Source: Planoprotostelium fungivorum (Eukaryota > Evosea > Variosea > Cavosteliida > Cavosteliaceae). Taken from it: a stretch of DNA of 64,000 bases. A program made the translations under genes and the position numbers. Position 1 is the first letter of the stretch; each line of letters opens with the position of its first letter. The notes beneath the pieces were generated by a model. That model searched no databases, was not told the DNA's origin, and was given only the letters and a program-made list of their open reading frames with translations. The DNA lies in contig MDYQ01000104.1 of NCBI GenBank assembly GCA_003024175.1, positions 1 to 64,000 on the forward strand. Direction: 5' to 3'. Positions 2,605-61,672 of this stretch are shown here, piece after piece.

Positions 2605-5600
2605 ATGATGAACTCACACAAGGGCAAGTATCGATTCTCTATCGATAGAGGAGGGACATTCACGGATATTTATGCGGAGGTGAGAATGGAAGGTGCGATT
2701 GGATTGATCACACGTAAAAGCTACCTGATGGAAGTTCTCGAGTGGTGAAGTTGTTATCAGTCGATCCGTCCAACTACGATGATGCCCCTCGAGAGGGTAT
2801 CCGGAGGGTGATCGCTGAGGTGAGCCAGGATTGAAATCACATAGACGTGACGTCTGCAGTTTGAAAGAAGGGAGATTGACAAGAAAAACGTTCCCGCCGC
2901 TAATATCGAGTGGATTCGCATGGGAACGACTGTAGCCACAAATGCATTGCTCGAGAGAAAGGGTAATCATCGACGATGAAGAATGATCTCATCGTCCATT
3001 AGGTGAAGAGACTCTCTTCGTGACTACCGAAGGTTTCGGTGACGTGTTGGACATCGGCAATCAATCGAGACCATCCATCTTCGATCTCGACATCCGAAAA
3101 CCAGAAACGTTACACAGACATGTGATCGAGATCGCCGAGAGAGTCAAACTCATCAACTGCAACAATGAAGGTGATGTCATCATCGTCACATCATCTCACC
3201 ATCTCTCTCATCACTGACCTCGTCTCAGAATCAGTCTCGAAAGACAGTCGCATCGTCACAGGCATCACAGGAGAGAAGTTAGAGATACTGAAATCACCCG
3301 ACCCAGAAATAGTCCGCAGCCAATTACAACGAGTCAGAGATCTCGGCGTCAACAGCGTCTGCGTGGCCCTCGTTCACTCGTACACTTTTCCGGTAAAATT
3401 CTACGTCGACACGTCGAACTGATCACCACCCAGGATCACGAGAATTTAATCGGAAAAATCGCGCGGGAAACCGGCTTCACCCAGATCTCCCTCTCTTCCG
3501 AATTATCCCCCATGGTCAAACTCGTTCCACGCGGCCAGACTGCATCCGTAGACGCTTACCTCACCCCTCTCATCGTCAAGGTGACCAAGTCCTCCCGTCA
3601 CCCGTTCACCTCACCACCAGTACATGGACCACTTCCTCTCGGGCTTCGACGGAGATATTTCTGGCTGTGACGTGTCTTTCATGGCCAGCGACGGCGGTCT
3701 GTGTCCAACGGAACAATTCAACGGCTACAGATCCATTTTATCCGGCCCGGCCGGTGGCGTTGTCGGTTACGCTATGACGACGTACGAAGAATTGGGCAGA
3801 CGGCCCGTCATCGGTTTCGACATGGTGGGTCATCTACAACGATGTAGATGACACAAATCACAGGGAGGAACGTCGACGGATGTATCGAGGTATGACGGAC
3901 ATTTCAGCCACATTTACGACACGGAGATCGCGGGTGTCGTCATCCAAGCTCCACAGTTGGACATCAACACGGTGGCAGCAGGGGGAGGGTACGTAACCGA
4001 CACGAAATTTCGATGACATCTCGTAGATCGAGGTTGTTCTTCAGAACCGGGATGTTTGTAGTGGGTCCAGAGTCTTCTTCAGCTCACCCTGGCCCCGTCT
4101 GTTACCGCAAGGGAGGATATTTATCTATTACGGATGCAAATCTCGTTCTAGGAAGGATTTTACCGGAATATTTCCCGAAGATATTCGGAGCTTCCGAAAA
4201 GGTGGAGAACTCGTGGAGAATTCGGGTGACGTGGGCAGGAACCATTGGATGAAGAGGCATCGAGGAACAAGTTTGAGGAGATGACGGAGGAGATCAATCA
4301 GTATTACGCATCACATCACGATGGTGTGGGTTCACTCAAGAAGGTAACCATCATCCGAGCACGATCGATCATCACCATCACCATCATCTCATCATCTCAC
4401 CATCGCGATCATGATCGTAGATGATCATCACATGACGTTCTCAACTCTTCTCAGTTAAGCGTCGAAGAAGTCGCTTACGGTTTCATCAAAGTGGCCAACG
4501 AGTCCATGTGCAGACCCATCCGTTCCATCACCGAAGCGAGAGGTGAACCATGATTTGATGACGTCATCCAACGTTACCAGGCTACGAGGCCAGCAGTCAC
4601 GTTCTCGCTTGTTTCGGTGGTGCCGGAGGCCAACACGCTTGTGCATTAGCCAGGAGCTTAGGAATGAACACTGTTTTCATTCACAAATACGCCGGAATAT
4701 TGAGCGCTTACGGCCTGGGACTCGCGGACGTGGTGTACGAGGCACAGGTGACGATCTACAACGTTGTAGATGATGAACGTGGTAGGAACCCTGCGCGGTG
4801 ACGTATTCGAGTGAAACGGTTAGTGAGATGAAGGAGAAAGTGGAGGGCCTGAAGAGAAAAACGCGGGAAAAATTGACATCGAAGGGATTCAAAGACACAC
4901 ACGTCAAATCGGAAGTGTACGTGAAATTTCCGAGAATTATCTGAGATATTTCTAGGTACTTCAATTTGAGGTATGAAGGAACGGATACGGCCATGATGGT
5001 GGCTGAGCCTGAAGATGGAGATTACTCTGCCGCATTCATGAAAGCGTACAAGAGGGTGAATCTCGTCGAAATTTTAGCGTGATGACGTCACGCAGGTGTA
5101 CGGGTTCTTGCTGGAGAACCGAAAAATCATGGTGGATGACGTCAGAGTCAGAGGAATAGGGTCGACCAACAAGGTGGATTCTAAAAATAGCACAACTGCA
5201 CGGCCAGTTTCCAATGGTCCTGCGGAACCAGTCACTCACGCCCAAGTTTACTTTGAGGTGAAATTGATGAAATTTCAAATCTCTAAATTTTCCAGGAATT
5301 GGGTAGAGTCTCGTCACCGGTGTACATCCTCCAACAATTGAGCCCCGGGACCAAAATTTCGGGCCCATCGATTATCATCGATAATACGTCCACTATTGTA
5401 GTGGAGGACAACTGCGAGGCTGAGATCACAAAGGGAGGAGACATTCGCATATCTGTGGGTAAGCAGGGTCTATCCAGAGTGGGGTGAGTCCGTCCATCTA
5501 CAACCCGCCACAAAATTCTGACTTGTTGTAGAACGGAGTTGGACAGTATCCAATTGTCCGTCTTTGCCAATCGGTTCATGAGTATCGCTGAACAGATGGG

Positions 5601-7635
5601 AAGAACGTTACAGAGGACATCCATCAGTGCAAACATCAAGGAGAGACTCGACTTCTCTTGTGCTCTGTTTGGCGTGAGAAATTCTACGATATGAGAATTT
5701 CCATCGATTCTCTATGACATTTCTCATCCGTACAGTCCGACGGAGGTTTAGTCGCTAACGCCCCACACATACCAGTTCACCTCGGTGCTATGGTAACGTT
5801 CATCTACAACGTACTATTCTGAAATTCCACAGCAAGAAGCCGTTCGATGGCAGATGAAGAACCGTACAGATTGGAAAGAGGGTGTCGTCGTTCTATCAAA
5901 TCATCCGGGTGCCGGTGGTTCTCACTTGCCAGATTTCACTGTCATGACACCCGTCTATCACGGAGGAGAGGTAAGATGTCACGTGAGATGTCGTACGAGA
6001 AGGTTCTGACGGTGAGGTAGGCGGTGTTCTACGTGGCAAACAGGGGACATCACGCGGATATCGGTGGAATTTCGCCCGGTTCTATGCCACCTTTCTCTCG
6101 ATCTCTGAAGGAGGAGGGAGCTTGTACCAAGAGCTTTCAACTCGTTGTAGATGGAATATTCCAGGTAGTTTCACGTGATGAGTGAATGTTCTGAGAGTTT
6201 TTGTAGGAAGAGGGGATCACGGAGGTATTGATGGCTCCAGGCAAGATCGACATGGGACCGAATTACAGCGTGAGATATTTATTCTCCATCTACAACGCTG
6301 TAGACCGACGTGAACCAGGGACCCAAGATCTCAGGATCGCGAAATCTCCGTGACAATCTCTCCGATCTCAAAGCACAAGTGGCAGCCAATAACAAGGGCA
6401 TTCAACTATTATCCGAATTGATCCATCAGTATGGTATCGACGTGGTGCAAGCTTACATGAAGCACGGTGACATTCAAACGAAGTGAAGTGATGCTGAAGA
6501 GAATGCAGTGCAAAACAACGCGGAGGAAGCCGTGAGGGAGATGCTGGTGCAGATGTCGATCGATTTCAACTTGAAACCGTTGGACACGGTCAGTGCGTCA
6601 GATTCTATGGATGATGGTACTCCCATCTACCTTCAGATCACGATCGACAGGTGATATTTCACATCTGCAGATGGAGTCATCACCTCATCGAATCACGTGA
6701 TGTCTCATGATGACACACATCAGGGAGAAGAGAAGTGCACATTTTGACTTTAGAGGAACGGGAGAAGAAGTCCTCGGCAACATCAACTGTCCACGTGCCA
6801 TATCACTGTCCGCCATCATCTACTGCATGCGATTACTCGTCAGGAAGAACATTCCCCTCAACCAGGTGATCGATCTATAACGAGTCACTACTAACCCCGC
6901 AGGGCTGTCTGGTCCCTATTTCCGTGGAAATTCCGGAGAATTCCATCTTGTCCCCCTCCGATACCGCCGCCGTCGTGGGAGGCAACGTGTTGACCAGTCA
7001 ACGCGTGACCGACGTTATTTTGAGAGCCTTCCGGGCCTGTGGTGACTCTCAAGGCTGCATGAACAACTTCACCTTCGGTGATAACACGATGGGCTATTAC
7101 GAGACCATCGCGGGTGGAGCTGGTGCCACGAAGAAGGCAGACGGTGCCAGCGCCGTACAAGTACACATGACCAACACTCGAATCACCGGTGAGATTCATA
7201 GAGGGTACATCGATTGAATCGTGTAGATGTGGAGATTTTGGAGAGGAAGTACCCTGTGTTGTTGAGGCAGTTTTCCATTCGGAGAGGAAGTGGAGGAGAG
7301 GGAGAGCACAAGGGAGGAGATGGTGTCATTCGTGAGATCGAATTCCTGAAGAATCACTTCACAGCTGGAATCCTCTCAGAGAGGAGAGTTCACGGTGAGA
7401 TGATCCGATATTCGATCGAAATCGATTTTATTTCGATTTATTTCTCGGTTTGGACTCAAGAAGTTTAGAGCCGAAGGGATTGGATGGAGGAGAGCCAGGG
7501 CACAAGGGAAAAAATCTTCTCATCAGAAGAGATGGACACATCATCAACTTGGGAGCGAAGAACAGTGTCGCTGTGTCTATGGGAGATCGCATACGATTGC
7601 ACACACCCGGCGGTGGTGGCTGTGGTCACAAATAA
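2605..7635 (+). CDS. OPLAH: 5-oxoprolinase (ATP-hydrolysing)
   Basis: The gene hydrolyses 5-oxo-L-proline to glutamate with ATP in the cytosolic gamma-glutamyl/glutathione cycle. The N-terminus has the hydantoinase-A signature [14 protein letters not shown]. The central part has [20 protein letters not shown] and [10 protein letters not shown]. Splicing out the intron at 3825-3863 restores the conserved DMGGTSTDV. The hydantoinase-B half follows, with [34 protein letters not shown] and a Gly-rich tail [11 protein letters not shown]. Order and overall size match the single-chain eukaryotic enzyme of about 1,290 residues. At least fifteen introns of about 38-60 nt interrupt it, and several (3825-3863, 4748-4785, about 6270-6303) carry the palindrome described elsewhere. 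The last exon is followed directly by AAATAAA-like sequence, then by the convergent isocyanide synthase gene 126 bp on. I did not fix every intron boundary. Confidence 0.93.
3831..3850. repeat. Intronic palindrome, CATCTACAACGATGTAGATG
   Basis: A near-perfect 20-bp inverted repeat fills half of a 39-nt intron (3825-3863) of the 5-oxoprolinase gene. Removal of that intron restores the conserved DMGGTSTDV motif, so intron status is secure. Confidence 0.85.
4754..4771. repeat. Intronic palindrome, ATCTACAACGTTGTAGAT
   Basis: A perfect 18-bp palindrome lies inside a 38-nt intron (4748-4785) of the 5-oxoprolinase gene. The flanking exons read VVYEAQ and EPCAVTYSS in frame once it is removed. Confidence 0.85.
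5495..5531. repeat. Split-arm version of the intronic palindrome
   Basis: CATCTACAAC (5495-5504) and GTTGTAG (5525-5531) are separated by 20 nt within one intron (5484-5531). The downstream arm ends exactly on the splice acceptor TAG. Confidence 0.7.
5801..5810. repeat. Half-site of the intronic palindrome
   Basis: CATCTACAAC is followed by GTACTATTC rather than the matching arm, inside another short 5-oxoprolinase intron that ends ATTCCACAG. I read it as a decayed or half copy. Confidence 0.55.
6287..6306. repeat. Intronic palindrome overlapping an acceptor
   Basis: CATCTACAACGCTGTAGACC lies at the 3' end of a 5-oxoprolinase intron. The right arm GTAG supplies the acceptor AG before the exon that encodes the conserved [10 protein letters not shown] segment. 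Confidence 0.75.
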
Positions 7636-7761
7636 ATGATACATCTCCATTCACAATCTATTTCACAAGAGATAGATTCACAAGAGTTCCACTTGGATGT
7701 TTATCTTTCATGAGAGGTCTCAGACACAGAGCTCTTCCGTGTCGTCACCCTCCTCACGCCT

Positions 7762-8875: not shown

Positions 8876-9164
8876 AGCAGCGGAACGTTCCGTAAACCCT
8901 AAAACCAGACCGGGTGATCGGATGAACTCCTCAGCGAGGAAAAAGTAGGAAGTGTAAATGTCAGCAGTCCGTCACTGGGTTTCCGTGTCGTCGTTGAAGC
9001 TCACTTAGAACTTCAGGTGTGCTTCTTGATAGTTCGAGAATCCACCAGACCTAGACTAGTCATGCATCGCTCAGTCGCTGTGTTGTGTTGACGATGATCA
9101 TGCAATATTTTATTGACGTTGAATTTCGTGATTAACATGTTTATTTTTCAATCGGACACGAACG

Positions 9165-12100
9165 ATGATTATGGAGGAGCTTCTCATCGAAGAGGGCAGT
9201 AGCCGTCGACGAGTAAAGACATGGATTTTGTACATACCCATCATCCTGCTTGCCCTCATCTTTCTATCAAATACCATAGGATCGGCCGTATCTTCGAAGA
9301 AGTTGTCTTCTATTGAGAGTTATCTCTCTGGAGTTGAAGAGGGGCATTCACTAAACGACGGTGGTTGTCCAGGTAGAGATTGGTGACGTGGATGTTGCCT
9401 TGTTGATCATTACACAGAATACACAACACAATATGATCCCTTCTACGGAGGTATGAATGGAGGATCACAATTGAACAATAATGTCGTGAGTGTTGATGTC
9501 GTCATCCAATCATCTCACACATCTCTTTCAGAGTCAATCAACGACCATTCTGAAGAATGGTACCGTTTGGGTCGGGAATGGACAGGTACATCATCTGCAT
9601 TCCCACATCCTCTCACGTGATCACACAGGTCTTTGTCAACACCGACGTCGTTATCGTCAAAGGCAAGATCTCCGCCATCACAAAGAACTGGTCCGGTTCC
9701 CAGGCTGGAGCCACCATCATCCAATTGAAGGGCGAGATCGTCACACCCGGACTGGTCGACATGCACAGCCATCTCGGTGTCTACTCGTGAGTCGATCAGA
9801 TCGATCATCGCCCACTCACATCTCACAGCTACCCCGAAGACTCGTTCGGTACACAAGATGGCAACGAGATGACCAACCCCACTTTCCCTCAGGTGAATTT
9901 CATCCATCTACAACGCTGTAGACGAACGACGTCAGATGAGAGCCTTGGACGGTCTGAACCCCAACGACCCAGCGATACCGCACATACGCTCCGGAGGCGT
10001 AACGACTTCCCTGGTACTCCCAGGTTCAGGAAATATCATGGGAGGAGAAGCCGCCATGGTCAAACTCCGTGACGGTACCATCCGAGGTGAATTGTCGACG
10101 TCGACAAGTCACGTGACCCATCCCAGAGATGCTCATCCCTGATGCTCCCAGGGCCATGAAGATGGCCTGTGGTGAGAATCCAAAGAGAGTCTACGGAAAC
10201 CGACAGCAGACACCCATGTCCAGAATGGGTGTCACTTATCTACTGAGGAATCGATTTCTAAAGGCGGCGGTGGGTGTGACGTCACGTGACGTCACTGATG
10301 GGGTAGGAACTGCGTCGAGCGCAGGACGAGTGGGACTGTCAAGCTCACGCTGCGAACGGGAAGTCAACCGGTGCGAGGCCATTCGATTTAGACTTGGAGA
10401 CACTCGTGGGAGTACTCAGGGGTCAGGTGTGAAAATCCGATGAAAAATCGAGTTCTCGTTGTGATGGGAAACCAGGTCTTACTCAACGTCCACTGTTACA
10501 AGGAAGAAGGTGAAGAAGATAGGGGGGAAATGGAGTGAAATTTTGCGTAGATTTGGAGATGATGGTGAGGACTTCGAAGGAGTTCAACTTTAAGATCGCG
10601 GCCTTTCATCACGGATTGGAGGCATGGAGAGTGCCTGACCTTCTACAACGCAACAACATCAGTGCAGCCATCTTCACCGACCACTGGGGTTTCAAAATGG
10701 TGAGACGATCACGTGACCTCCCCCTCACATGCCACAGGAAGGATACGACGGAAGTGTCCACGCGGCCAAGATATTGAACGACGGTGGAGTTAACGTGGCT
10801 TTAAAATCAGATCATCCGGTTTTATTTGCAAAGGATCTCGTTCATGAAGCAGCCAAGGCATTTCACTATGGTTTACCCGAACAGAAGGCTTTCTGTGAGA
10901 TATCATACGTCTCTATAGATGATATCTCTTACGATATATATTGGGCTCTGACATGGAATAGCGGCCGTGAGTCTGAATCCTGCGAAAGCACTGCGATTGG
11001 ACTCGCGAATCGGATCACTCGAAGTAGGAAAGGAGGCTGACGTCGTCGTGTGAGATTTCTAGGAAATTTCCTGGAATTTCTGAAGAAAATCAGATGGCCC
11101 AACCACCCTTTTGCACTGGGATCGAGGCCCAGTCACGTGTTTGTAGATGGATGGTTACTTCACACAAATCAGAATACGAAAAAAAATCTGAAATCACCCA
11201 CACCATCTACAACTCGCCTGGTTTCCACTGGGAAGACCGCCTGCACTCCAAGTCCGTATCCATCTTACGCATTGAAAACTCACCGAAATTTCAGCTTCTC
11301 GTTCTTTTTACGTCTCTGGGGTGAACGTCTACACCATGGACGCTGGTGAGTCGTGACATCACATCAAGACATCCTATCGACACGTTTCAGATCAAACAGT
11401 TTTGACGGATGCCACCATCAGCGTTGTAGATGGCAGCGTCACTTGCGTTGATAAATTATGTCCCATACCTTCAGGAGATATCGATCGCTACAATCTTCCG
11501 GTATGATATCACATGCGACATCTTCATGACATGATTCAGGGTGGTGTGGTCATCCCTGGAATCGTTTCGTTGGACGGAAGCACTGCCCAGCAGGAGGTGA
11601 ATCTCAGACTACAACGCTCCAATGACGAAAAAAGGTCGATGCCGAAACATCATCACACGACGGAAGTGTATCTACAACCGGCCAGAACATCAGGGCAGTG
11701 GACGGTATCGTTCCCACCATCTACTACCAACGCAAGGTACGTACGATATCGCGTGCGACATCTCAACGGACACAGATCAAATCGGCATTCGGTGGAGGAG
11801 TGACATCAAACATCGTCTTACCCCAGGGGAATCGTGTTCTATCGGGTGTGGGAGGTTTCATCTACACCTCGCCAGGAACCGACGAATTCTCCGTGAAATT
11901 TCCCAGAATCATCTCGGAAAATTCTTCCCTCAGTTCGTCCCTGGGAAATCGAGCCAAGTCCGGAGTCAAGAGTGTTTCTCAGCAATTCGCCGAATTACGA
12001 GCTTTCTTCCAGGTTAGCGAAATTTCCTCCAAATCTCTCACACCTCCCAGGTCGATCTCAACACAAGCCGTAACACTCCCGTGGGAAGCGTATTGTCCGG

Positions 12101-12770
12101 TGCTATCCCTCTCGTTGTCGACGTCGACCAAGCCGATCACATCTCTTCTCTCCTCCGTCTGAAGAAAGAGCTGAACATACCCCGTCTCATCATCCGTGGG
12201 GGAGCAGAGTCACACAAGTTGAAGAGTCAACTGGCTTCGGAGGGTGTCGCTGTCATCTTAGCACCGGCCAGACCGAAGCCCAACGAGTTCGAGACCTGGT
12301 GGAGTCCGTCCCTTTTATTTCGTTTTAATGTTTTTCCAGGAATTCGAGGGAAGATGCGGTGGTGGTGCTGAGAGAGGCTGGAGTGAACGTGTCCATCGCA
12401 GTGACGGACCGTGAGTGATGACGTCATCACACGTCATTGACAACGAGCAGCGGGATCCGTACGTAATTTGAGATGGGAGGCAGGGTGGGCCGTGGCCAAT
12501 GGAATGCCTTACGTGGAAGCACTGGCTTCCATCACTTCCGTTCCCGCCAAAATGTTTGGATTGAATGGAGTGGGTAGGATTCGAGTGAATGAAACGGCCA
12601 ACTTTGCTCTCTACGGAGGAGATCCACTCTCTCTGTCTTCTTCCGTTCAGGTATGACACGCGATCATCATCACTTGAACATCCATCGTTCGATCATGATC
12701 ACATCATCTGAGACACCTGCAGTTGGTCGTTGCAAACGGATACTTAGCCTGCAACCCCCAACAATTCTAA
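9165..12770 (+). CDS. Membrane-anchored tandem amidohydrolase
   Basis: An N-terminal cytosolic tail of about 20 residues (MIMEELLIEEGSSRRRVK) is followed by a single membrane anchor (WILYIPIILLALIFLSN), predicting a type II protein. The first catalytic region is imidazolonepropionase-like: KGEIVTPGLVDMHSHLGVYS holds the metal-binding HxH. It continues with RSGGVTTSLVLPGSGNIMGG and FKIAAFHHGLEAWRVP. A second, diverged copy begins around 11400 (DGSVTCVD, GGVVIPGIVSLDGST) and lacks the HxH. It runs through AFGGGVTSNIVLPQGNR to EAGWAVANGMPYVEALASIT and NFALYGGDPLSL. Two-domain proteins of this kind occur in fungi and other protists. I infer a hydrolase of unknown substrate facing the lumen or outside. 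About fifteen introns interrupt it, several with palindromes (9905, 10276, 12415). The stop lies 20 bp from the convergent surface-protein stop. Confidence 0.8.
9905..9924. repeat. Intronic palindrome, CATCTACAACGCTGTAGACG
   Basis: Imperfect palindrome within a 43-nt intron (9893-9935) of the amidohydrolase gene. The exons around it read PTFPQ and MRALDGLNP. Confidence 0.8.
10276..10295. repeat. Perfect 20-bp intronic palindrome of a second type
   Basis: GTGACGTCACGTGACGTCAC is self-complementary over all 20 bases and occupies most of a roughly 37-nt amidohydrolase intron between exons ending in NRFLKA and beginning with ELRRAQDEWD. It contains nested CRE-like TGACGTCA and E-box CACGTG cores. 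Confidence 0.8.
12415..12430. repeat. Perfect 16-bp intronic palindrome
   Basis: GTGATGACGTCATCAC begins four bases after the first base of a roughly 40-nt donor-to-acceptor intron (GTGAG...GAGCAG) in the amidohydrolase gene. Its centre is TGACGTCA-like, as in the palindrome at 10276. Confidence 0.75.
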
Positions 12771-18054: not shown

Positions 18055-21044
18055 TCAGAGGATCTCGCAGCAACAACAAGATTCCTTCTTACGAGGTCGT
18101 GGAGGGATGAGAGGGGAGCTCTCGCTGTGTCCAATGGCTATGCTCGTGTCGTCGTTCACCGATGAACTGAGAACCCGTCCACTCTTTGTCAACTCTTCTC
18201 TCTTCTGCGAGTGATCCAACTTCTATACTGCATCAGATGATGAGTGGACTCAACGTCTCACCATCTTGAGCATGGCCCTGTCGTCCTCCATCATCTTGTT
18301 CTCCTGCTTGAGGAGGGTGATGAGAGATAACCGCTCGATGTCTCTCCTCTTGTAGAGCTCGATGTCACTCTCGAGGGTGTGGAGGAGACTCTGCAGGTTG
18401 GTGTCCTTTGACTCTCTTCCCACTATAACGATTCAGTAAGGTTCGTGGGGTGGAGAGGCGGAAATTCAGAAGAAATTCCAGCGCCTCTCCGCCCAATGTA
18501 CGGAAGCGGGCGACCATAGGTCGTTGTCTACTTCCATACGTAAGAGGTGGAAAAGTCATCGAAATCCCACCGGGTTGTACGGGATGCGTGACGACACCGT
18601 TGGTCGGTGGTGAAGTCATCGGTGCCTTGTTCGTCTCTTGGTACTTTTGTAACTGTGAGATGTTATCGATCTACACCGTTGTAGATGGATCACCCTCTCG
18701 TTGGCGTCGTGTAATTGTTTTCTCAGGAGAGCGTGTTCGTCTTGCAGGCATTTTAGAGACACGTCCACCTTCTCCAAATTTCTCAACTTGACTTCCGTGT
18801 TGTCTAATCTCTCCTGTTCACGTGTCAGCCTCCACGGTTGATCGAGGCATTCAGGTGGTGAGAGCACCCACCTTGAGGTAAGCGTTCTCATCTTGAAGCG
18901 ACTTGGTCTGATTGCTCTCCACTCTTACGCTCGCCCTCGGATTTCCGTCTTCCATTCCTCTCATCTTGTCCTTCAGCATCTTGTTTTCTTGCTCTAAGGC
19001 GTGCATTCTCTGCTTCTATTCAGTCTTGAAGAGGAAGATGTCTCACCCCCTCTGTCATGGGTGAGATGGGTCGGATGGGTGACAGTTCTAAGTTCATGGT
19101 GGGGATGTCCATTCGCTGAATCGTCTGACCTGTTTGTCCTCAATTCTCAAATGTCATCATGATCGGTGATGATCGACATGATGATGATCGTATCATGTCG
19201 ATGATCACCACAGGGTGATCTGTTCGTTCTCCTCACCATTGCCTGCGCTAAATGAGGCACGACTGGCTCTCGGTGTTCTCAATTTGGCCAGTTGTTGTTC
19301 CAAGATCTCGATCTGGGGCTCCAGGGTCTGTATCCCTTCGAATGGATTCTTCTCTCCCTGTCTCATCTCTAATTTCGCACAGGCCGAACGCCACTCTGAA
19401 ATCTCGTGTTCGTTTCTATTCGACTTCAGAGACGAGAGAATCGATTGCGATCACTCTTCCAGGGCGGCTTGCATCTCGTTGATGATGTCCTGACGTTGTT
19501 TCAACATGTCCGTGTCCTCCACGTGTTGGGCGAGTAACTGTCTCAATTGTGTGCTGTGATCTTCTCTCGTCTTGTATTTTTCCATCAAGTCCATGTGTTC
19601 TCTCTCCAAATGGTTGTACTTCTCTCGTAACTGAAACAATTGAGTCATCACCATCATCTCTTCATCACTCTACCTCGGTTAATTGTTCGTTCGAGCGATT
19701 CTCTCCAAAGGATGTGCTTGTCCTGCGAGGTTGAGTTGAGAAGATGGATTGAATCGAAATCACTTGAAGGTGGGGGCTGTGGTATCCACGGTGGGTCTCC
19801 TCTCCGCGGTGTATCCGTGTCTAGGTGACATGGGAGGACTCTGACTCTGTGATGGTTCGTATCTCGAATCTGCGAATGCGATGTGAGACTCACCTCCGGT
19901 TCGTGGGACATCTCCTGCAGACTTCCTATGATATCTCAACTGGATGTCTCACGAGATAGACTCACGATTGAGGACATCCCTCTCTTCCATCAATTTGATG
20001 TTGACTCGATTGGCCATCGTCTCCCTTCTCTTCATCGTCAGAATCTCCTCCTTCAACGTCTCCAACTACAACGAGTCAAAACGGTCTCGTCACCACCCTC
20101 TCACCTCTTCTGACAGTTGCTTGTTCGTCTCTTTCGTTCGGTCAGCTTGGTGTAATTTTCTCTTCGCTTCCTTCAACGTCTCTTCATCGCGGCTGATTCT
20201 GTCTAATAATTCGAATTGTCTCTCGTCTCTCTCGATCAACTCGGCTTTCAGCGTTATGACAGTCTGTCGTCACCATCAGCAACGGATGACATGGTGTGAA
20301 CTAACCTTCTTCAAAGATGCAACTTCTTCTGTCAGATTGTCTACTTCTTGTGACAACTGAGATTTTCCTCAACATGGATGGTGAGGGATGGGAGCTCACC
20401 GCGTATTGCATGCCGATCAGTCTCTTGTTGGATGCGTTACGACTGGGTGTGGAGACGTAATTCGAAAATCTTTTTCTGAAGTCATCCAAAGACAGGATGA
20501 TAGAATCCTAAGAATCATCTTCAGATTCTCCCGTTTGCACGTCATGATGTATGTGTGATATGATGAATGGATGCAATGGATTGCGAATTATACGTCAAGT
20601 CCATATGGATACGCACTCTGTTGTTATCCTGTGGGAGATCTAGATCGGGTTGAGGGATGGGAGCCGGTTCAGCACTGTCCAAAAGAGGTGCCAGACCATC
20701 TACGAATTCTTGGAAATCGATGTAACCTTGGACAGTCAATCTTTCTTGCACACAGACGAAAAATGATCCTCACCTTTTCCTTGTTTGTCAAGTGAACTAA
20801 AGAGAGAGTCCAATTCCGATTCGGGCACTGGTTGTCCTCCATTCAGTCGTTCGACAGTCGCCCTCAGTTCCTGTCGATCGATCTTGCCATTTCCATCGAG
20901 ATCGCACTCCTTAAAGAGATCCTGCATCCATTTCACTTGTTCGTCGCCGAGTGCATTGCCATCCGTCTGCGATTACATATCAGAATCGAAGAGGGGAGAC
21001 AAATATATGTGCGTAATTAAACATACGATACGAAGATATACCAT
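18055..21044 (-). CDS. EF-hand, coiled-coil protein with CaaX box
   Basis: Two EF-hand loops lie at the N-terminus: DLDGNGKIDRQE and DKQGKGYIDFQE. The second is completed only across an intron. About 700 residues of heptad-rich coiled coil (Glu/Lys/Leu/Gln) follow. The last exon ends PRPRKKESCCCCEIL: a polybasic patch, a cysteine cluster and a C-E-I-L CaaX box, where the final Leu favours geranylgeranylation. I infer a calcium-responsive membrane-tethered scaffold. EF-hand plus coiled coil plus prenyl tail recalls Rab45/CRACR2A proteins, but no GTPase domain is present. The proposed first exon is just the ATG (21042-21044), spliced by a 75-nt intron to TDGNALGDEQVKWM; this is the weakest part of the model. 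The intron at 18693-18653 (41 nt) carries the palindrome, and another near 19150-19210 has a long hairpin. Confidence 0.75.
18669..18686. repeat. Intronic palindrome in a minus-strand gene
   Basis: ATCTACACCGTTGTAGAT, one mismatch from self-complementary, sits in the 41-nt intron 18693-18653 of the EF-hand/coiled-coil gene. The flanking exons read HDANER and LQKYQETNK. This shows the element is not confined to one coding strand. Confidence 0.8.
19167..19207. repeat. Long intronic hairpin
   Basis: Arms at 19167-19182 and 19192-19207 pair at 15 of 16 positions around a 9-nt loop inside an intron of the EF-hand/coiled-coil gene. The arms are built from GATGATC-like units unrelated to the CTACAAC element. 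Confidence 0.65.
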
Positions 21045-42151: not shown

Positions 42152-45100
42152 TCATTCCGTCTGTCCGTTCTGCATGAGAGATAAGTACTGTTCCGCCAGT
42201 CTCAGCTCCGTCATGTAATTCTTCGTCTTCGCTTCGTCTCTGATGCTCACCACCTGTCGTATCCATCAGCCATCCCATCATCACGATCATCATCACGATG
42301 ATCGATGATCCCATCACCTTCTGTACATTGGCCGTCTTCACAGCGAGAAGATATGCCGATTTCAACTTTCCACACCGAATGAGAGCATCGATCCTCCCTT
42401 CCTCTGAAGTGATCGACGAGATCCAGCTCTCCGCCTCCTTGTTGTTCCCCTGCCCCAACAATTTGTCGATCACTTCGTGCACCAGCGAATCCCAATCTTC
42501 TTCGCTCTCCATCATGGGCTGTACACCTTCAGATGCGTCACCCTCTTCTCTCACCCTGGCTCTCTTGACGATCTTTCTCATGAGCTTGAGGTGATCGTTG
42601 GTGGAGGTGTGTTCGACTGCAGCGAGGATGATCTTTCGGGTGGGGAGTTTGAAGGAGACCATCACCGTGACACCCAGATCGATAAAGTCTTGCAGTAACA
42701 AGGCTTCTGCGATCTCTGCCTATCGATCAGAGGAGCCATACAATCTCTTCTTCGTAGAAATGTCTCGTTGTAGATGAAAAGAGTGTATCGTTGTAGATGA
42801 AAAGAGTGTATCGTTGTAGATGATAGAGATGTCTCGTTGTAGATGAACTCACGGCATCTCTGAGAGGAGGAACCGAATACGCTCAACTTGGAAGTCGTCT
42901 CCGTTTGTCCCAGTGCCTCGATGATGCCCTGTTGTAGATTGACCCTCTTGATGTACTTGTGAAGATCCGCCTTGGCCATCATCCCCGTTCCCTGTGTGGG
43001 CTCTACGTCACTGTCCAATTGTCTCGTGAAATAAGTCTGCTCCCTCTCAGCCCTCTTCTCCTCTCTCTTCCCACCTTGGCTCTCTCCAGGAATTGATCCT
43101 TCTGAATGAATTGATCGCTCTTGACGTAAGCTTTGATGCACGTGAGTCCTGCTCTTCCCCAATCTTTCATGGCGACTTGGAAGCTCAATAGCTCTTCCAA
43201 TCTGTCCTTACTGTTTAGACAGTTACAGCAAGCCAAGAGATAGTCCCAGCTGTGTTGCATCTCTGGATCTGTATGACGGGTGAGTCTCTTGTTGTAATCG
43301 TTGATTCACCCGCTTCGAATACGGCTTGGAGGAGTTCTGGGATGTTATTCTGCGTGATGAAATAGTGAACGATGTCGTTGGCAAACCACTGGGGTGTCAC
43401 TTGTTTTCGATTGATCGAGTAGACGCACAGCTGTCGTATGTCACCTTCACTCCTCACACTCCTCACCTCTTTGTATCTCTTCCAATGGATGAGGAACTTG
43501 TTCATCAGTGTCGGTGTTCCGTATTCCGTCAGATAATATCTTTCACTCGTCATTCGTTCATTCACCGAATGATCCTCACATGCACTCCTGAAATAGACTC
43601 TCCCTCTCTGGGCTCCACACGTCAGATGCTCCCCCCACCTTGGGAGAGGCTATCGTGGAGGCTATTTTTATCACTATCTCCCTTCTCCACTCTCTCTCAC
43701 CTCTCTGTCGGCTGACTGTGTCGGGTGATTTATTCACCACTTCCTCTCGATTCATTCTGAAGGAAGACCTCCTGTCCTTCTCTTTGCTCACCGTCGTCTC
43801 CTTCTGTACACGATCAGTCGACGTCGACGTGCGTTGTAGATGACCTCGTTCACTTGGGGTAGAAAGTCTAGGATGGACAAGATGTTCTTCAAGACGGTAT
43901 CGATCTCCTGTCGTGACGTCTTTGGTGAAGATAGAGCGTGTTTGAATTTGTCGTGGGCCTGCGAGTGATCACCGCTGCGCAGACAGTGCATGCCCCAGGC
44001 TGTCCACACGGGCTCTCTGTCCAAGCTGTATCGAGAGCACACGTAGAGTGAGATCTCATATTCTTCTCCCTGGATGAGTAGGTCTCTCAGGTACCTGCGA
44101 TCGTTGAACGTGAGAAGGAGAATTCGACTCACCTGACTTTGTTCTTGTCGGTCAGCTCCAAGAGAGAATAATTCAAGTTCAATCGAGCACCCTGCAGTCT
44201 CTTCATCAATTCGATGTCACAGAGATAAGAGTCACACAGGGATTCCTGCTCCGTTGAGTCGAGTGCACGTCATCACACGTCACATCACCCTCCCTCGATC
44301 CATGTGTTCGTTCGATGCAAAGAACAACTTGGCCTCAGATATGATGCGGTTCATCGCATTGACCAACATCACTTCTGCACTGCCGGACATCATCTTCTGT
44401 CCCTCTCTCTTCTGATTCATGTCGCCTTGTTTCTTCAGATGTCATCTCTCCATTCATCTCACCAGATATGAGATCACAGAAGTCGATGAGGTGTTGTCCC
44501 AACTTGGATGATTTTCCCAATTTGAGGATGGAGAGGGAGAGGTGTAGATTGTGATGGCCGCTGTTGAAGAAGTGACTCGATCGAATGGATTCGTCTTGTT
44601 CGATGTAACCTGATCATGGTGATTATCTCATTCGGATGTGATGTGACGTCGATGTGAATGTTCATCATCGATGTGATACCTGTCAATACGGCATCCCAAT
44701 GTCCGATGTAATCGTAATTCAACCAGAAAGTACCACCTACATCATTCATTCACTGAAGAATTCTTTCTACTCACCTGTGATGGTGGAGATGGAATCCGCA
44801 CTGACTCTCTTCTTCGATGTCTTTCGGAAACTGCATCTCTCGAACGCATCACTCATCAGACTGGAGAAAGTCAACGATGTGAACGTGAAAGTCAACGATG
44901 AGACGGTTCAATCGACGATGAAGAGACATCACTTGTCCAACTGTGGGGGTAGGTGGATGTCTTCCCGGAAATCCAGAGCCTTTCTAGCGTACTGGAGCAA
45001 CTTGGTGCTGGTGATGAGCTCTGGATACTGCCTGAGGATACATCCTGCCTCATCAATGTATTCCATCATGATGAGATTCTCCACGATGAGATCAGGAAAT

Positions 45101-48447: not shown

Positions 48448-48459
48448 ATTTTCATTTGT

Positions 48460-54269: not shown

Positions 54270-54327
54270 TCAAGTTGAAATACTCGGAATTCTCAAGTTG
54301 AAATACTCGGAATTCTCAAGTTGAAAG
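54270..54327. repeat. Tandem 23-bp repeat just upstream of the PARP start
   Basis: Two and a half copies of a 23-bp unit beginning TCAAGTTGAAATACTCGG and ending AATTC (54270-54292, 54293-54315, partial to 54327) end 36 bp before the PARP start codon. The two full copies are identical, so the duplication is recent. It may be promoter or 5' UTR sequence. Confidence 0.8.
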
Positions 54328-54362
54328 TCGTTGTTTCTTCTGTGGAGTAACAATCGACAAAC

Positions 54363-57300
54363 ATGCCGAAGAGGAAGGTGGAAATCAAAAGCGACGAGGT
54401 AGATGGAGCCAAGAAAGTCAAGTTGGAGCCATCCTCGATGAAAGTCACAGAGCTTCGTGAAGAATTGAAGCGATTAGGACATGATTCCAAGGTGGGAACA
54501 TCCGATAATGAACCCTGACTGATCGCACGGGATTAGGCATTGAAGACCAAGGCACAGTTAGTCGCAGCTCTGGAGAAACTTGTTGCATCGGATGCGGAAC
54601 CTATACCTGAAGAACCAGAAGAACCATCACCAAAGGTAGTCGAATTGACCACCTTCAGAATCGACGAAAACAAGACTCTCTCTTATTGTGCTCGATATGA
54701 GTCCACTGGGGATCAAGATGAGGAGGTGACGGACGTCCGATGGATGTCATTCTCACACAAATAGGTCGAGGAAGAGTGGCTGGAACCGTCTGTCCACTTG
54801 AATCTTCCACTCGTAATGGTCAGAGAGTTTGACAAAAAGATGCGAAAAGAAACCCTGGAGCAGATGAGATCAGCCACCCAATCGAGGTATTGTGAAACTC
54901 CATCAGTGGTGAAAGTCATGCTGTTCAGGGTCATCCCAGAATACACCGAAAAGTGTTGCGAGAATTGCATGCTGAAGGGATTGGACAATGCATTCCATCG
55001 AAGGGATCTGACTGGCTACAAGCTCATCCGAGACCACTTCGTAGACCATGATAGCAAGATCAGGGTATCGACTCACATCCAGCAGAACCACGTCTGGCAG
55101 ACCACCAGCCCGAAAGATGAAGAGTGGTTCAATTATCTCTCCCCGGAAGTCACCTCGATTCACAGCCTGACCTTCTCTTCTCTCCTCAGTCTCTCCGCTT
55201 TCCAGTTCATCATGGCAGAGTGATGCATTTACATCTCTTTTCCAAAATTGATTCCAAGCCCAGTTTGAAGACGGATGTGGACCGTCTGTGGAATTTCGTG
55301 GCCCTGTTGATGGAGAACGGAGACGCCGAATCACTGAAGAAGGTTCTACCCATACTCTACCAGGCAGAAGCTCCACTGAGGGAGATACCTCCACCCATCA
55401 TCGAGCCAGGAAGGAGGAGAAAGAGCAAGAGATATGTACCACCTCCCTTCCTTACCGAATTACATATCTTGGCTCTCACAGCTGAGAACGTTGCAGATCT
55501 AGAAGGAAAATTAACACCGGAGGTGATGTGATGATGATCATCATCATCATTCTGTAGGGAGAAACTCATTCGAACAGGCTGTAGAGAAGAGAACGAAACA
55601 GAATCACATTCCCCTCCATTTCTCAGCTCTCAACAACAATCCCGACATCGCACGAGCACTGATGAGAATGAACCCTAAGTGAGTCGATTCCATGGTGATG
55701 TGAGGCTGAAGAGATGCAGCACCGCAATCTTATGTGATCAATCCGGTCGTACTGCTTTGTATTATTCCATTCGAACGACAGGAAAAGGAGAGGCCGTGAA
55801 GGGTAACGTCATGCTGCCGTCTGAGGTGAAGAGGAAGAGGGCAGAGAAGGCGGAGAAGGAGAGAGAAGAGACGAGGAGACAGGCAGAGGAGAAGAGACAA
55901 GAGGAAGCGAAGAAGAAAGAAGCGGAGAGACCGAAGGAAACGAAGAGCACTCGATCGAGGAAAATATTGGAAGAAGAGATGGAGGTGAATCAGATCTGTT
56001 CGTAACACGAAGGAGAATGACGTGAGATAGATGGAGGAGAAGACAGAAGAACCGAAGAAGGAAGAGGAAGTGAGAAGCAGAGAGGAGATAGAGGCCAACA
56101 GACAGATCGAAGCCGCGAAAAAGCTTCCCACGGAAGATCTCGTGTACATCTTAGAGACATTTGGGTTGAACCACAAGAAGGGAACGAAACAAGAGATGTT
56201 GGAGAGAATGCGTCCCGTCTTAGCTTCTGGTCAACACATCGTCTCTTATGATTCTCTCTCATTGGGTGAGCTATTCTCTCTCCTCTCTTCATCTTTCTCT
56301 TATTTCTCTCTTCTCTTCTTATTTCTCTCTTCTCACTCTTATCAGATGAGTACGAACCAGATTACATATTTCCACCCAATACATCCCCCGTCATGTTGGC
56401 TCTCCTCTTCCCCAATGGAATGGATTCACTCGATCTACACCCCTACTTTATGACCCTTCACTCGTCCGATAATCTGATCACGAGGGCAGCTCAAGTTGGA
56501 AACATCCCCAACTACGAAGCTCTCTGTCTGTACAGTGAACAATCGATCGTAAAAGGTCTCGATTCTGCCAATTTGGTGAGATCATTCCACACATCCAACA
56601 TGATCGGACTCATCAACATGTAGGACGTCTTCCAATGGATCGTGGAGAGGAAATTCTTCCAAGTGTTGAAGAATGGCAATCTCTCGCGTAGATTGGGTCT
56701 CTCCATCAACAAAGATGACGTCGAATTCCAGAAACTGTTCACCTTATCCAAGTACCACGCACTGACGGACGATCTAGTCCAACAGTGCATTGCATCACCC
56801 ATCGGTCACATGGCCCTCAAGGACATCATCACTGTTCCTGGAATATCCGTCAAGATATCCAGAACTCAATCTCACTCCCCCATCCACCAGGTGATTCCAC
56901 TCGATGATAGAAGAATTCTCAAGGAGATCTCACAGGCGGTATCTGTGGGAAACATTCTTGCATCCGAACTGTTGATCTCCAATGGAGCAGATGTGAACGA
57001 CGTGGATGTGAACGACTACCCCGTCATTTTGAGGGCCGTAGCCTCTCTACACTTCCCCTTGGCTGAGAAATTGATGAAAGCCGGTGCCAGACTGAAATCC
57101 TTGGAGGAGAAGGAAGAGGAAGAGAAGGAAGAACAAGTCGTGGACATCGATTTCTTAAAGTCCATCTCTCGTCCCATCTTCCAAGGCATGGTGAGTGACT
57201 CTTTAGAGAAGAAGGAATTGAAGTGTACGAGGTGTTTGTCATATCTGGAACCTTCAGGATGGAGATGTCCTCCCTGGCTCGGTTGGTGATTCAATACGGA

Positions 57301-60300
57301 GCTGAAGTGAGCAAGACACCCACCGGAAGGGTGACTCATCTGTTGGCGGGAGATCGAGGTATGACTGAATACGGATCCATCACGGGCCCTGGCTCTAAGA
57401 AGTGGAAGGACACGATGGTGAGAATGATTCTCTTTCATACCATTGCGAGATAACCTGAAGAATATTTCAGGCATTACGTCCGGTGGTGGTGAGAGAGGAT
57501 TGGATCAATCGCCAGATCAAGAAGAACAAGCAAGATCGAATCATCTACCTCGGTGAGGGACAAGAGGCGGTAGCTCATTCTGCACTGTACAAGCTGCTCG
57601 CACAGAGTCACTTTCACAACAACAAGCACCTCTTCACTGTCGTTCGATTCCTCTTCGATCACGATGCTCCATTGGAGGAAGATGCATTCGATTATTTCGT
57701 CCAACATTCTGATGATGGAGAGACTCTTCGAATGATCTTAGACTATGACAGAGAGAAGAACGGGTCGAAGGTGAGACCATCTTGGATACATATATCGTGA
57801 CGTGAAATCCAGTTGATGAATCGAAGAGTGCGTGGCAATACGGTCTTGATGAGATACATCGTTCAGAACAAAACGCGATCGGCACAAGTGGCGATGGATT
57901 TCACCAAGGATCTCAACGATCATCAAGATCCCATACCCCATGAAGAGTCTCTCTCCATTCTCCACCTCATGGTTCAATCCAACAACCTCACTCTCCTCAC
58001 GACAGCCATCAAGATGTGAGTCACCTCTCCGATATCACGAGAGAAATGGATCTTATCGTCCTCTTTATTCATATCAAAATAGGGGAGCCGATCCCAACAT
58101 CAAAACGTTACAAAAGAAGACACCCCTCATCGTTCATTGCGTCAGACAACAGCGCTCAGAGTGTTACTTGTACCTGGCTAGGTGAGGGAGAACGAGAGAA
58201 GAAGACTCACATCGATAGTTTGCCTCAAGTAGACGTCAACGCAAAAGACCAAGAGGGACACACCGTGTTGACCCTCATGGCCTCTCTGAACAACATTACA
58301 CTCCCACAGGATCTATCTCAGCACATTCTAGATCGAAAGAAATTGAAGCAGATGTCTTCCGATCAGGTGACGATCACACGAACATCTCTATGGATGAGCT
58401 GACACCGATCAGATGACAGAGGACACGGTGACGGAGTTCGATCTGACAGTTCGATACACAGGAGAGAATCTGATGAATCTACTGTGCAGGAAATCTGAGG
58501 GAGTATCAGACATCAACTGGGTCCTTCAGTTCCCAGAGATGATAGACGATCTCACTCACCCCGTCTGTCTCGCTCTGGAATGCCATGTGATATCTCATCC
58601 GTCAATTCCTCATTATCATCTCATAACACATGAGGCATATCACATCCATCATGCAAGAGATGAGAGAGTGGACTCACACAGAGATGTAGAAATGGTGGCT
58701 CGCTGTGTTTCTCATCGAAAAGGGAGCGGACATCAACAAGAGGGGAGCCAACGGTCACACTCCCCTCTACACCGCTTTAGTGAGGAGAGCCAACATCTCC
58801 TACTGGTTCCTCAGACATCCCAAACTCGATCACTCGAGTGAGAAGCCTTTCTAGTACATTCTTCTCATCCACACAGGGGCTCTGTCTGACGTCACTGAGA
58901 GGGGAGATGCATTCCAGATCCAAAGCATCTTGGATAAACTCTCCGATCTGACGATGAAGGAGAGGGCGGACGCCGTGAGAAATCTGACGCTGAACAATAC
59001 CACCGTGGATCATCCTAGCCGAGATGCCTTCGTCACTCAGTTCATCGGAGATGACTTCACCACCATCTTCTCGGATATCTTTTGTGCTTCGGTCAGTCCT
59101 TCTCCTCTTTCACCTCTGACATTTCCACCAGAACCACTCCCAGGCTGTGAGAATCATCGAAGGCAAATATTGGAAGACGAAGATATTGGAGTCACCGGAG
59201 CTTCTCACCGTGGAGAATGCAGAACACAAGACTACATTGCATTACCTTTTGAGCCACATGAGCCCAACAGAGGTCTTGAAGCTTGAATCCCTATTGAAGC
59301 AACACCCCCACGTGAGATCTCATTCACCTCTCACTGGAAATTCAATTGACGACGTGAAAGGTATTATCTCACGTGGATAGTTTGGGTAAGACCATCTTCC
59401 ACCATTTTGCAGAATCGAGAACCGATCTTCAGTCTCTCCTGAACATCTCCTCTGAATCCATCTCCACACGAGACAAGAGAGGAATGACACCACTTCATTA
59501 CCTCCTTGACAGTGACAACTTCTCCACCATCCGTCTGTCCCAGATCCTCATCTCTCACGGTGCGGACCCAACGGTGAAGAACGAAGAGGGTCGCACTCCC
59601 ATCGACTTGGCCTCCAATCTCCCTCCCCTCCTGGCTCAGAGGGTCTTCTCCATCATGTCCACCACAAGTGATACCAAGTGGAAGGAGAGTGTGAGGGAAG
59701 GACTGGAGAGGGTAGAGAAACAGTGGAAGGAGAGAGCGGACAAGAGTGAAGAGAAGAGAAGGGAGAAGATAGACAAGATGAAGAAGGAAGCGGAGGAGAT
59801 CAACGAAAAGTACAAGATGGAGAAGAATCAGATGAAGAGGGCGGGCTCCTTGGGTAGACTCACGGACAACAAGAGCGTGGCGAGAGAATTAGACATTCCG
59901 TTCATCGCACCGGTGAGAGGGAAGAAGAGAAGAGATGGACTCACCAGTGTAGATTGATGGAGCGTGGAAGATTCTGGTGGAAGATGAACAGATATGGGAC
60001 ACCACTCTGTCTCTCACCGATGTCAATGCTTACATCCACGGTACGAACAAGTACGCTCTCATGCAACTGTTGGAATGCAAAGAGCAACCCAAGAGAAACA
60101 AGAAGGGTGAGTGGACTCATCATCGGAGAAGAAATGAACGATACAGGGATCTTCATTCCTTATCTGGGAGAGCCCTTCATGATCTTGAGAGAGTCAGGAC
60201 ACGTGGGTGGATCACCGAAACCGAAGAACGAGAGGATGTACTACTCCACCTTGGAAGAGGCCAAGGCAGAATTCACAAAGTACTTCCACCAATTGACCAA

Positions 60301-61672
60301 ACAAGATTGGCCCTACAAGAGGGGACTGAAGAAGAACAACGGATACGCCGTAGTGGAGAAGATCTACGACATCAAGGTGACACCAGAGATGGAGGAAGAA
60401 GAGAAGAAGTCCAGTCGATTGGAAGAGAGAGTCAGAGATCTGATGGGATGCATCGCCTCCATGCCGATGATCCGTAAGGCCATGAAGAGGGCAGGTGTCG
60501 ATTGGTCCACCCTCCCCGCTGGAAGAGTCAACAGTTCCACCATCCAAGAGGCCTTCGAGATCCTAAAGAAGATCGAAGACGATCAGATCACCCTCGAAGA
60601 GTTGACCGAGCAAGGACACAACTGGCAGAGCAAGGTGAGTTTCACACCATTGAAGGAGGCTGACGGGTGCAGGAAATGAAGGATGCAAACGAGAGGATCG
60701 CCCAGCTATCGAACGACTTCTTCATGTTGATTCCACACAATCTGTCCGAAGTGTCACAGAGGAGTATTTCCAGTGAAGGCCAATTGGAAGAGAAGACGAA
60801 ACTGTTGGAACGTCTCAGAGACATCGGAACGGCCGTCGATCTCATCTCCTCTCCTCCCGGTTTCAGTCAGGGTGATCTCTTCGATCCTCTACAACGTTGT
60901 AGATCGACTCACCTCCCCCAGGTGTCCCTCGATTGGATGCCATATCGTACGGATTGAACACCCGAATCACAGCCTTAGAAGCGACAGACAGAAGGTTCAC
61001 CATGCTCACCGAATGGGCGAGGCGGACGCAGGGTGGCCTTCGGATGAAGAATGTCTTTGCGGTATCAAGGAACGAAGAGATGAGCCGATTCGAACCTTGG
61101 AGACAACAGAGGATCAGGGACACAGGTACCACCACACCCAACAACCTCTTGTTGTTCCACGGTACAAAGGTCTCGAACATGTTGGGTGAGAATCAAATCC
61201 AACTGTTCCCTTCTCATCGTGGCTACAGGTATATTGAGACACGGACTGCGTATCGCACCATTGAATGCTCCCCGAACTGGACTGGCCTTTGGTAAGGGAG
61301 TCTACTTCTCTGATGCTTTCGCAAAGAGCCGTGGTTACAGTGATGGGAACTACATGTTCGTCTGTGAGGTGCGTAGTTGAGAGCGTGATCGTAGTGATGA
61401 TGATGTATGGCTCACCTCGATAGGTGGCCGTAGGTAAACCCAAAGAGCTGCACTCTGGATTGTACATGGAAAAGCCAGAGGAAGGCTTCGATTCGACCAA
61501 GGGTGTGGGAAGGCAACAGCCAGAGTCAGAGTCCATCGCCATCCAGAACAATGGTGTCGGTATTCCCTCTGGTACAATCGAAACGGTTCAAGGTCCGTGG
61601 CTAGGATACAATGAGTTTATCGTCTACGATGAATCGAGAGTCAAGATCAAGTACATCATCCAATGGGTGTAG
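54363..61672 (+). CDS. SAP-ankyrin-BRCT-WGR poly(ADP-ribose) polymerase
   Basis: The order of parts is as follows. A basic nuclear signal (MPKRKVEIK). A SAP DNA-binding helix pair ([18 protein letters not shown], then [12 protein letters not shown]). A Cys-containing region of unknown fold. Ankyrin-type repeats with an acidic/basic coiled stretch (about 55800-56100). A BRCT-like segment ([17 protein letters not shown]). More ankyrin repeats ([20 protein letters not shown]). A WGR domain ([17 protein letters not shown] at its end). The helical regulatory domain. The catalytic domain retains the H-Y-E triad: [27 protein letters not shown] and [18 protein letters not shown]. Roughly 1,900 residues and more than thirty short introns; one (60872-60921) carries the palindrome. 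I infer a DNA-damage-responsive nuclear PARP, with ankyrins suggesting tankyrase-like partner binding. Confidence 0.87.
60888..60903. repeat. Intronic palindrome, TCTACAACGTTGTAGA
   Basis: A perfect 16-bp palindrome in the 50-nt intron 60872-60921 of the PARP gene, between exons reading PPGFSQG and [10 protein letters not shown]. It is the copy farthest from those in the 5-oxoprolinase gene, about 57 kb away. Confidence 0.85.

What the first reader, a model, noticed from the sequence alone, without database searches (positions are those of the whole stretch)
3831..60903. Recurrent palindrome CATCTACAACGTTGTAGATG inside tiny introns of unrelated genes
Seen directly: full or near-full copies at 3831, 4754, 6287, 9905, 18669, 29314, 29510, 29863 and 60888, plus half-sites at 5801, 11608, 20063, 25472, 29740, 30223, 36009, 42766-42846 and 43830. 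Nearly all lie in introns that frame and conserved protein motifs prove. They occur in 5-oxoprolinase, an amidohydrolase, a coiled-coil protein, a RasGAP, a dehydrogenase and a PARP, on both strands. The element fills up to half of a 38-50 nt intron and usually begins a few bases after the donor. Explanations include an RNA hairpin that shortens the donor-branchpoint distance, a sequence dispersed with new introns (introner-like), or a DNA-binding site tolerated only in introns.
Basis: partly seen in the sequence, partly recalled or inferred. Interest (0 to 1): 0.87.

Follow-up and report, generated by a model that had tools for sequence, protein, structure and literature searches.

The report
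Conserved palindrome inside tiny introns
In a stretch of DNA from an unidentified eukaryote, one exact 16-letter palindrome sits nine times inside very short predicted introns of unrelated genes and nowhere else in the stretch, which looks like a protein-binding site kept only within introns.

Summary
Nine dyads with core TCTACA-NCGN-TGTAGA match all 14 fixed positions; none has one mismatch, one has two. All nine lie in introns predicted by a gene finder that does not score intron content, in five gene models. Shuffles give none. Introns are 16% of the window; 17 kb of nongenic DNA holds no full dyad.

The favoured reading changes. Dyad introns are no longer than others, so a hairpin that shortens the donor-branchpoint distance is unlikely. 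The 156 other introns of 34-60 nt show no excess folding. Intron palindromes are in excess mainly at zero spacer; two words, TCACGTGA and TGACGTCA, make up about a third of that excess. The arms never vary. Nine further introns hold half-sites, in both orientations. The rest of the dyad introns is not significantly alike.

Best explanation (0.40): a site for a dimeric DNA-binding protein within gene bodies. Absence from nongenic DNA is the main objection. An RNA stem-loop or a propagated intron remain open. The organism is unidentified and no relative was found, so function is inference.

The parts
3831..3850 (+). dyad copy, centre ACGA, in predicted intron 3825-3863 of the 5-oxoprolinase gene
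4753..4772 (+). dyad copy, centre ACGT, in predicted intron 4748-4785 of the 5-oxoprolinase gene
6287..6306 (+). dyad copy, centre ACGC, in predicted intron 6270-6318 of the 5-oxoprolinase gene
9905..9924 (+). dyad copy, centre ACGC, in predicted intron 9893-9935 of an amidohydrolase gene
18668..18687 (-). dyad copy, centre ACGG in the sense of the gene, in predicted intron 18653-18693 of an EF-hand/coiled-coil gene
29312..29331 (+). dyad copy, centre ACGT, in predicted intron 29309-29349 of an IQGAP-like RasGAP gene
29510..29529 (+). dyad copy, centre ACGT, in predicted intron 29503-29546 of the RasGAP gene
29863..29882 (+). dyad copy, centre TCGT, in predicted intron 29857-29902 of the RasGAP gene
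60886..60905 (+). dyad copy, centre ACGT, in predicted intron 60872-60921 of a PARP1-like gene
5484..5531 (+). predicted intron with a left half-site (CTACAAC) near the donor and a right half-site (GTTGTAG) forming the acceptor
5793..5832 (+). predicted intron with one sense half-site CATCTACAACG
11597..11685 (+). predicted 89-nt intron with sense half-sites at 11609 and 11671
20066..20104 (-). predicted intron ending in an antisense half-site CGTTGTAG at the acceptor
25444..25484 (-). predicted intron with an antisense half-site near the donor
29709..29748 (+). predicted intron ending in an antisense half-site CGTTGTAG at the acceptor
30220..30259 (+). predicted intron with an antisense half-site
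42750..42852 (-). predicted 103-nt intron with four sense half-sites CATCTACAACGA in tandem, 23-bp period
43804..43844 (-). predicted intron with one sense half-site CATCTACAACG
2782..7635 (+). host gene model: 5-oxoprolinase (hydantoinase A and B domains), 26 predicted introns
28045..30987 (+). host gene model: IQGAP-like RasGAP, 14 predicted introns
54363..61672 (+). host gene model: PARP1-like polymerase, 26 predicted introns

Best explanation
The palindrome is a sequence-specific dyad, TCTACA-NCGN-TGTAGA, which can be read as two inverted half-sites TCTACAACG sharing a central CG. It most likely is the binding site of a dimeric DNA-binding protein that acts within gene bodies; introns hold it because coding sequence cannot easily carry it. 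Shown in this window: the dyad, its invariance, its restriction to predicted introns, half-sites in both orientations, and an excess of other zero-spacer palindromes in introns. Inferred: the protein, the DNA (not RNA) level, and any effect on transcription or chromatin.
For: Nine copies match at all 14 fixed positions, none with 1 mismatch, one (in an exon) with 2; within the core only the two N positions vary, in 5 of 9 copies. No stem-preserving substitution is seen in the arms. In the 194 introns without the dyad, palindromes with zero spacer are in excess (arm >=4: 69 against 38.0, sd 6.1) while inverted repeats with 3-6 nt spacers are not; nongenic DNA shows the zero-spacer excess too for arms >=5 (13 against 6.5), exons do not. 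TCACGTGA (9 against 0.85) and TGACGTCA (6 against 0.93) lead the intron list; 8-mers are too short for a stable hairpin. Without these two and the dyad, no complementarity is left around 64 intronic ACGT. Nine of 203 introns hold half-sites without a full dyad: five sense, five antisense, one counted in both. A tandem half-site array has a 23-bp period.
Against: No full dyad in 17,133 nongenic bases; equal density there would give this with P 1.4e-4. Dyads are not near gene starts: relative positions 0.21-0.89. The two words explain only part of the palindrome excess: without them 65 remain against 41.4. Under an order-3 Markov model their expectations rise to 2.35 and 2.01. Mirror repeats, a control symmetry, are also above shuffles (introns 45 against 34.0, sd 5.1; nongenic 85 against 62.2, sd 6.1). 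In intron sense the right half varies more (9 against 2 changes at the N and adjacent positions, p 0.065), a hint of strand polarity. Counted by copies, half-sites in introns are 9 sense to 5 antisense. No binding protein is known.
Confidence: 0.4

Rival explanations
1. RNA stem-loop: the intron folds into a stem of at least 6 bp with an NCGN tetraloop that is recognised in the pre-mRNA, as a splicing or intron-retention signal.
For: The core hairpin is in the predicted minimum-energy fold of 8 of 9 introns; the two variable core positions would lie in the loop; pairing goes beyond the core in some copies, 10 bp in 3825 and 7 bp in 4748 and 18653; full dyads occur in predicted introns only; weak sense polarity.
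Against: Only 2 of 9 introns have z below -2, and 29309 folds otherwise. Dyad introns are not longer than others. The 156 other introns of 34-60 nt fold no better than shuffles (mean z -0.02). The arms show no compensatory change. Half-sites without a partner arm exist, several antisense. At the pair just outside the core, 5 of 9 copies have an A-C mismatch.
Confidence: 0.25
2. Introner-like spread: the dyad is the conserved heart of an intron that copied itself into new sites, as described for symmetrical introns of Hypoxylaceae; half-sites are decayed copies.
For: Restriction to introns; the 20-mer fills 40-53% of each host intron; 8 of 9 are in phase 0 against 105 of 203 (p 0.025); the three copies in the RasGAP gene share the letters CGG after the core; some clustering by gene (dyads p 0.077; dyads and half-sites together p 0.023).
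Against: Outside the core, dyad introns are only borderline more alike than random introns (mean score 6.42 against 5.57, P 0.083; best pair P 0.45). No excess of direct repeats across splice junctions. Copies are perfect or absent, without a tail of decay other than half-sites.
Confidence: 0.22
3. Chance, or an artefact of calling introns.
For: Introns come from my own gene finder, trained on this window only, without RNA evidence; the longer calls are doubtful.
Against: 0 in 100 shuffles; 9 of 9 in introns in four settings and 8 of 9 in the fifth; protein alignments continue over four of the removed introns without a gap.
Confidence: 0.02

Closest known systems
Symmetrical cropped sister introns and stwintrons of Hypoxylaceae (PMC8469720; listing and 12 passages seen)
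   Same: Canonical introns with internal symmetry around a short palindrome, at unrelated gene positions, no flanking short tandem duplications
   Different: There the introns are related over their length (for example 93 nt) with terminal inverted repeats of about 45-55 nt; here only a 16-nt core is shared and flanks are not significantly alike
Introner elements of Amoebophrya (PMC7789003; listing and 12 passages seen)
   Same: Inverted repeats of 8-20 nt in repeated introns, predicted hairpins
   Different: There the repeats pair the two ends of the intron, with 3-5 nt direct repeats over the exon/intron borders; here the dyad is internal and direct repeats are not in excess
Intron-mediated enhancement (PMC7419008, 10 passages seen; an Arabidopsis intron motif paper, PMC6760150, seen only as an entry of its reference list)
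   Same: Sequence carried in introns that could influence expression of the host gene
   Different: The Chlamydomonas study reports no distinct motif; here one exact dyad recurs, and not near gene starts
Noncoding motifs of Theileria parva (PMC2612703; 12 passages seen)
   Same: One short motif spread over introns and intergenic DNA of a compact protist genome
   Different: All three motifs there are commonest upstream of genes; this dyad is absent from the nongenic DNA of the window
E-box/G-box CACGTG and CRE TGACGTCA, sites of dimeric bHLH and bZIP proteins (labels recalled, from no call)
   Same: Zero-spacer dyads, also enriched in these introns
   Different: Different and shorter sequence; TCACGTGA also occurs in nongenic DNA (3 copies) and exons (1), the dyad does not

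Membership tests
Introner / introner-like element | Intron copies alike over most of their length | tested here: inconclusive
   flank similarity 6.42 against 5.57, P 0.083
Introner / introner-like element | Direct repeats (target-site duplication) at the junctions; absent in the Hypoxylaceae case | tested here: not met
   longest shared word over the two junctions: mean 3.56 nt against 3.96 in other introns, p 0.35
Introner / introner-like element | Recent gain, seen as absence from orthologous sites | not testable with these tools
   no genome held and no related locus found
Intron hairpin that shortens the donor-branchpoint distance | Linear donor-branchpoint distance longer than usual by about the size of the hairpin | tested here: not met
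   31.8 nt against 28.1 (p 0.19); intron length 43.4 against 42.3 (p 0.30); branch points of 9893 and 18653 scored weakly
Intron hairpin that shortens the donor-branchpoint distance | Compensatory changes in the stem | tested here: inconclusive
   core arms are invariant in 9 of 9 and so say nothing on pairing; the next pair is A-C in 5 of 9
Binding site of a dimeric DNA-binding protein | Exact dyad, with half-sites in either orientation | tested here: met
   nine dyads; introns with half-sites only: five sense, five antisense, one counted in both
Binding site of a dimeric DNA-binding protein | Occurs in regulatory DNA outside introns too | tested here: inconclusive
   0 full dyads in nongenic DNA; 6 half-sites CTACAACG against 0.25 expected, at least one (11422) in probable coding sequence
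Binding site of a dimeric DNA-binding protein | A protein binds it | not testable with these tools
   no binding data
Intron-mediated enhancement motif | Concentrated in introns near the gene start (feature recalled) | tested here: not met
   nine dyads at relative positions 0.21 to 0.89

The most novel reading that the evidence does not exclude
Tiny introns of this protist serve as carriers of a strictly conserved dyad that marks gene bodies genome-wide: a dimeric protein reads the intron DNA (or its RNA hairpin) along the gene, so that minimal introns are kept partly for the site they carry.
Probability: 0.25. Interest if true: 0.82.

Novelty: new variant of a known kind. Interest (0 to 1): 0.57.

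Why it matters
Introns near the lower size limit are usually thought to have room for little more than splice signals (general view, recalled). A 16-nt dyad without a single arm change in nine introns of five genes would mean that such introns carry a second, strongly selected code. It would give a concrete case for asking whether introns are retained for cis-acting sites, or whether symmetry helps introns to spread.

Tried and rejected
General intron hairpins: rejected, since introns other than the nine fold no better than shuffles and inverted repeats with 3-6 nt spacers are not in excess; an excess at spacers of 7-14 nt for arms of 6 or more (27 against 13.9) is left unexplained. A general ACGU-tetraloop rule looked strong at first (arm >=4 around ACGT: 10 against 0.27) but vanished when the dyad, TCACGTGA and TGACGTCA were removed. 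That these two words carry most of the palindrome excess was also considered and does not hold: they make up about 13 of 37. Four exon copies of CTACAACG are read as ordinary codons in the gene models and were not counted as sites. A first gene-finder setting called 540 introns and was discarded. Exact matches to TCTACAACGTTGTAGA in viral contigs (13 loci) carry one dyad each and were judged chance, without a count of the collection's bases. A longer query with a donor found nothing. Two protein searches for relatives found none (CCDC22 in viral contigs; RasGAP in genome contigs). A search for the letters of the dyad in papers gave three hits, all on human or mitochondrial topics by title. Topical searches (some lists were capped) showed no report of this dyad by title or start of abstract. 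The minus-strand lines are faulty (lower-case letters reversed, not complemented) and were not used.

Full report
Observation. The window holds nine near copies of CATCTACAACGTTGTAGATG (0 in 100 dinucleotide shuffles). With the core written TCTACA-NCGN-TGTAGA, nine places match all 14 fixed positions, none has one mismatch, one has two (in an exon) and five have three (2.0 expected). CTACA-N(0-14)-TGTAG occurs nowhere else in the window. Within the core only the two N positions vary (5 of 18 letters differ from the consensus); the letters outside the core vary more.

Introns. No genome or annotation was available, so I wrote a gene finder with a 3-periodic coding model, splice-site matrices and a length model; intron content is not scored. 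It gave 24 genes and 203 introns, most of 36-46 nt, with GTGAG-like donors and mostly CAG acceptors, and a branch-point matrix close to CTGA(C/T). All nine dyads lie in introns of 38-50 nt: three in a 5-oxoprolinase, three in an IQGAP-like RasGAP, one each in an amidohydrolase, an EF-hand/coiled-coil protein and a PARP1-like protein. With intron penalties of -4.5, -6, -8 and -10 the count is 9, 9, 9 and 8 of 9, and 9 of 9 with a higher gene penalty. The RasGAP alignment to IQGAP2 has no gap at the junctions of introns 29309 and 29503 and one a few residues from that of 29857. The hydantoinase alignment has no gap at the junctions of 3825 and 4748; that of 6270 lies beside a 17-residue gap, so it is not supported in this way; the end of that alignment was cut in the output. 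The PARP1 alignment has a one-residue gap near the junction of 60872. For 9893 and 18653 no alignment over the junction was made.

Distribution. Intron bases are 10,213, exon 36,654 and nongenic 17,133. Nine of nine in introns has probability 6.7e-8 by base share, or 1.4e-4 against nongenic DNA alone. These figures treat copies as independent, although three sit in one gene and three in another. CTACAACG on either strand: introns 23 (13 within the dyads, 10 outside), exons 4, nongenic 6, against 0.07, 0.57 and 0.25 in shuffles. The four exon copies read as ordinary codons in the gene models; at least one nongenic copy (11422) is probably an unpredicted exon. Introns with half-sites only (TCTACAAC or CTACAACG, 8 nt of exon allowed on each side) number nine: five hold sense and five antisense half-sites, with 5484 counted in both; by copies it is 9 sense to 5 antisense, four of the sense copies being one tandem array. 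All six nongenic half-sites lie upstream of the nearest predicted start, five within 500 bp, but 9,861 of 17,133 nongenic bases are within 500 bp upstream of a start, so this shows little.

Is it RNA structure? Of 203 introns, 165 are 34-60 nt long. The 156 without the dyad have a mean folding z of -0.02 against shuffles. In the nine, the core stem is in the best fold of eight, with two z-scores below -2. Dyad introns have the usual length and donor-branchpoint distance, so there is no sign that a stem takes up 20 nt. Branch points in 9893 and 18653 scored weakly and are uncertain.

Is it a DNA dyad? Introns hold more exact palindromes than shuffles: of 8 bp 80 against 43.7, of 10 bp 34 against 12.3, of 12 bp 15 against 3.5; exons do not; nongenic DNA little (65 against 64.5; 18 against 14.9; 9 against 4.2). 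With the nine introns removed (194 left) the excess is at zero spacer for arms of 4 and 5 or more (69 against 38.0; 28 against 11.2); for arms of 6 or more there is also an excess at spacers of 7-8 (10 against 3.5). In sampled nongenic pieces zero-spacer repeats with arms of 5 or more are in excess too (13 against 6.5). TCACGTGA and TGACGTCA together make up about 13 of the 37 excess 8-mers; without them 65 remain against 41.4, and without the ten commonest words 37 against 30.4. Around ACGT no complementarity is left after removing the dyad and these two words; around GATC one flanking position is above expectation (37 of 94, z 2.9). Six of nine TCACGTGA introns and four of five TGACGTCA introns belong to the three gene models between 2782 and 12770. 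Exact zero-spacer dyads are what sites of dimeric DNA-binding proteins look like; that CACGTG and TGACGTCA are such sites is recalled knowledge. The wider palindrome excess is not explained.

Is it a spreading intron? Flanks of the nine introns score 6.42 against 5.57 in random sets (P 0.083) and the best pair is not unusual. Junction repeats are not longer than in other introns. The phase-0 excess (8 of 9, p 0.025) and gene clustering (p 0.077 for dyads, 0.023 for all introns with a dyad or half-site) are suggestive. P values are not corrected for the number of tests. The Hypoxylaceae case (PMC8469720, passages) shows that symmetrical introns can multiply without duplications, so this rival stays open.

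Judgement. The recurrence is far beyond chance, restricted to predicted introns in this window, and under constraint on its letters. I favour a dimeric DNA-binding protein acting in gene bodies at 0.40; the lack of full dyads in nongenic DNA is the main objection. An RNA stem-loop (0.25) and a propagated intron (0.22) remain. The species is unknown; gene content (for example a leucine-rich-repeat kinase) gives me the impression of an amoeboid protist, which is not a result.

Noticed in passing
introns of gene models 2782-7635, 9578-11053, 11531-12770: TCACGTGA and TGACGTCA are enriched in introns, mostly in these three gene models (6 of 9 and 4 of 5 introns).
   Followed up: partly
42750-42852: A predicted 103-nt intron made largely of four tandem half-sites with a 23-bp period.
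   Followed up: partly
5484-5531: An intron with the left half-site near the donor and the right half-site as its acceptor, so that pairing of the two would enclose the branch point.
   Followed up: no
9578-12770: Two neighbouring gene models, each with a match to the C-terminal part of amidohydrolase profiles; perhaps one gene with unpredicted exons between them.
   Followed up: partly
38607-40636: Cytochrome b5 domain fused to an acyl-CoA dehydrogenase.
   Followed up: no
21187-26050: Long leucine-rich-repeat protein with a C-terminal kinase domain, 23 predicted introns.
   Followed up: no
48460-50553: CCDC22-like coiled-coil protein, a possible marker for placing the organism.
   Followed up: partly
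introns, window-wide: Excess of inverted repeats with arms of 6 or more and spacers of 7-14 nt in introns without the dyad (27 against 13.9), and of zero-spacer palindromes other than the named words.
   Followed up: no
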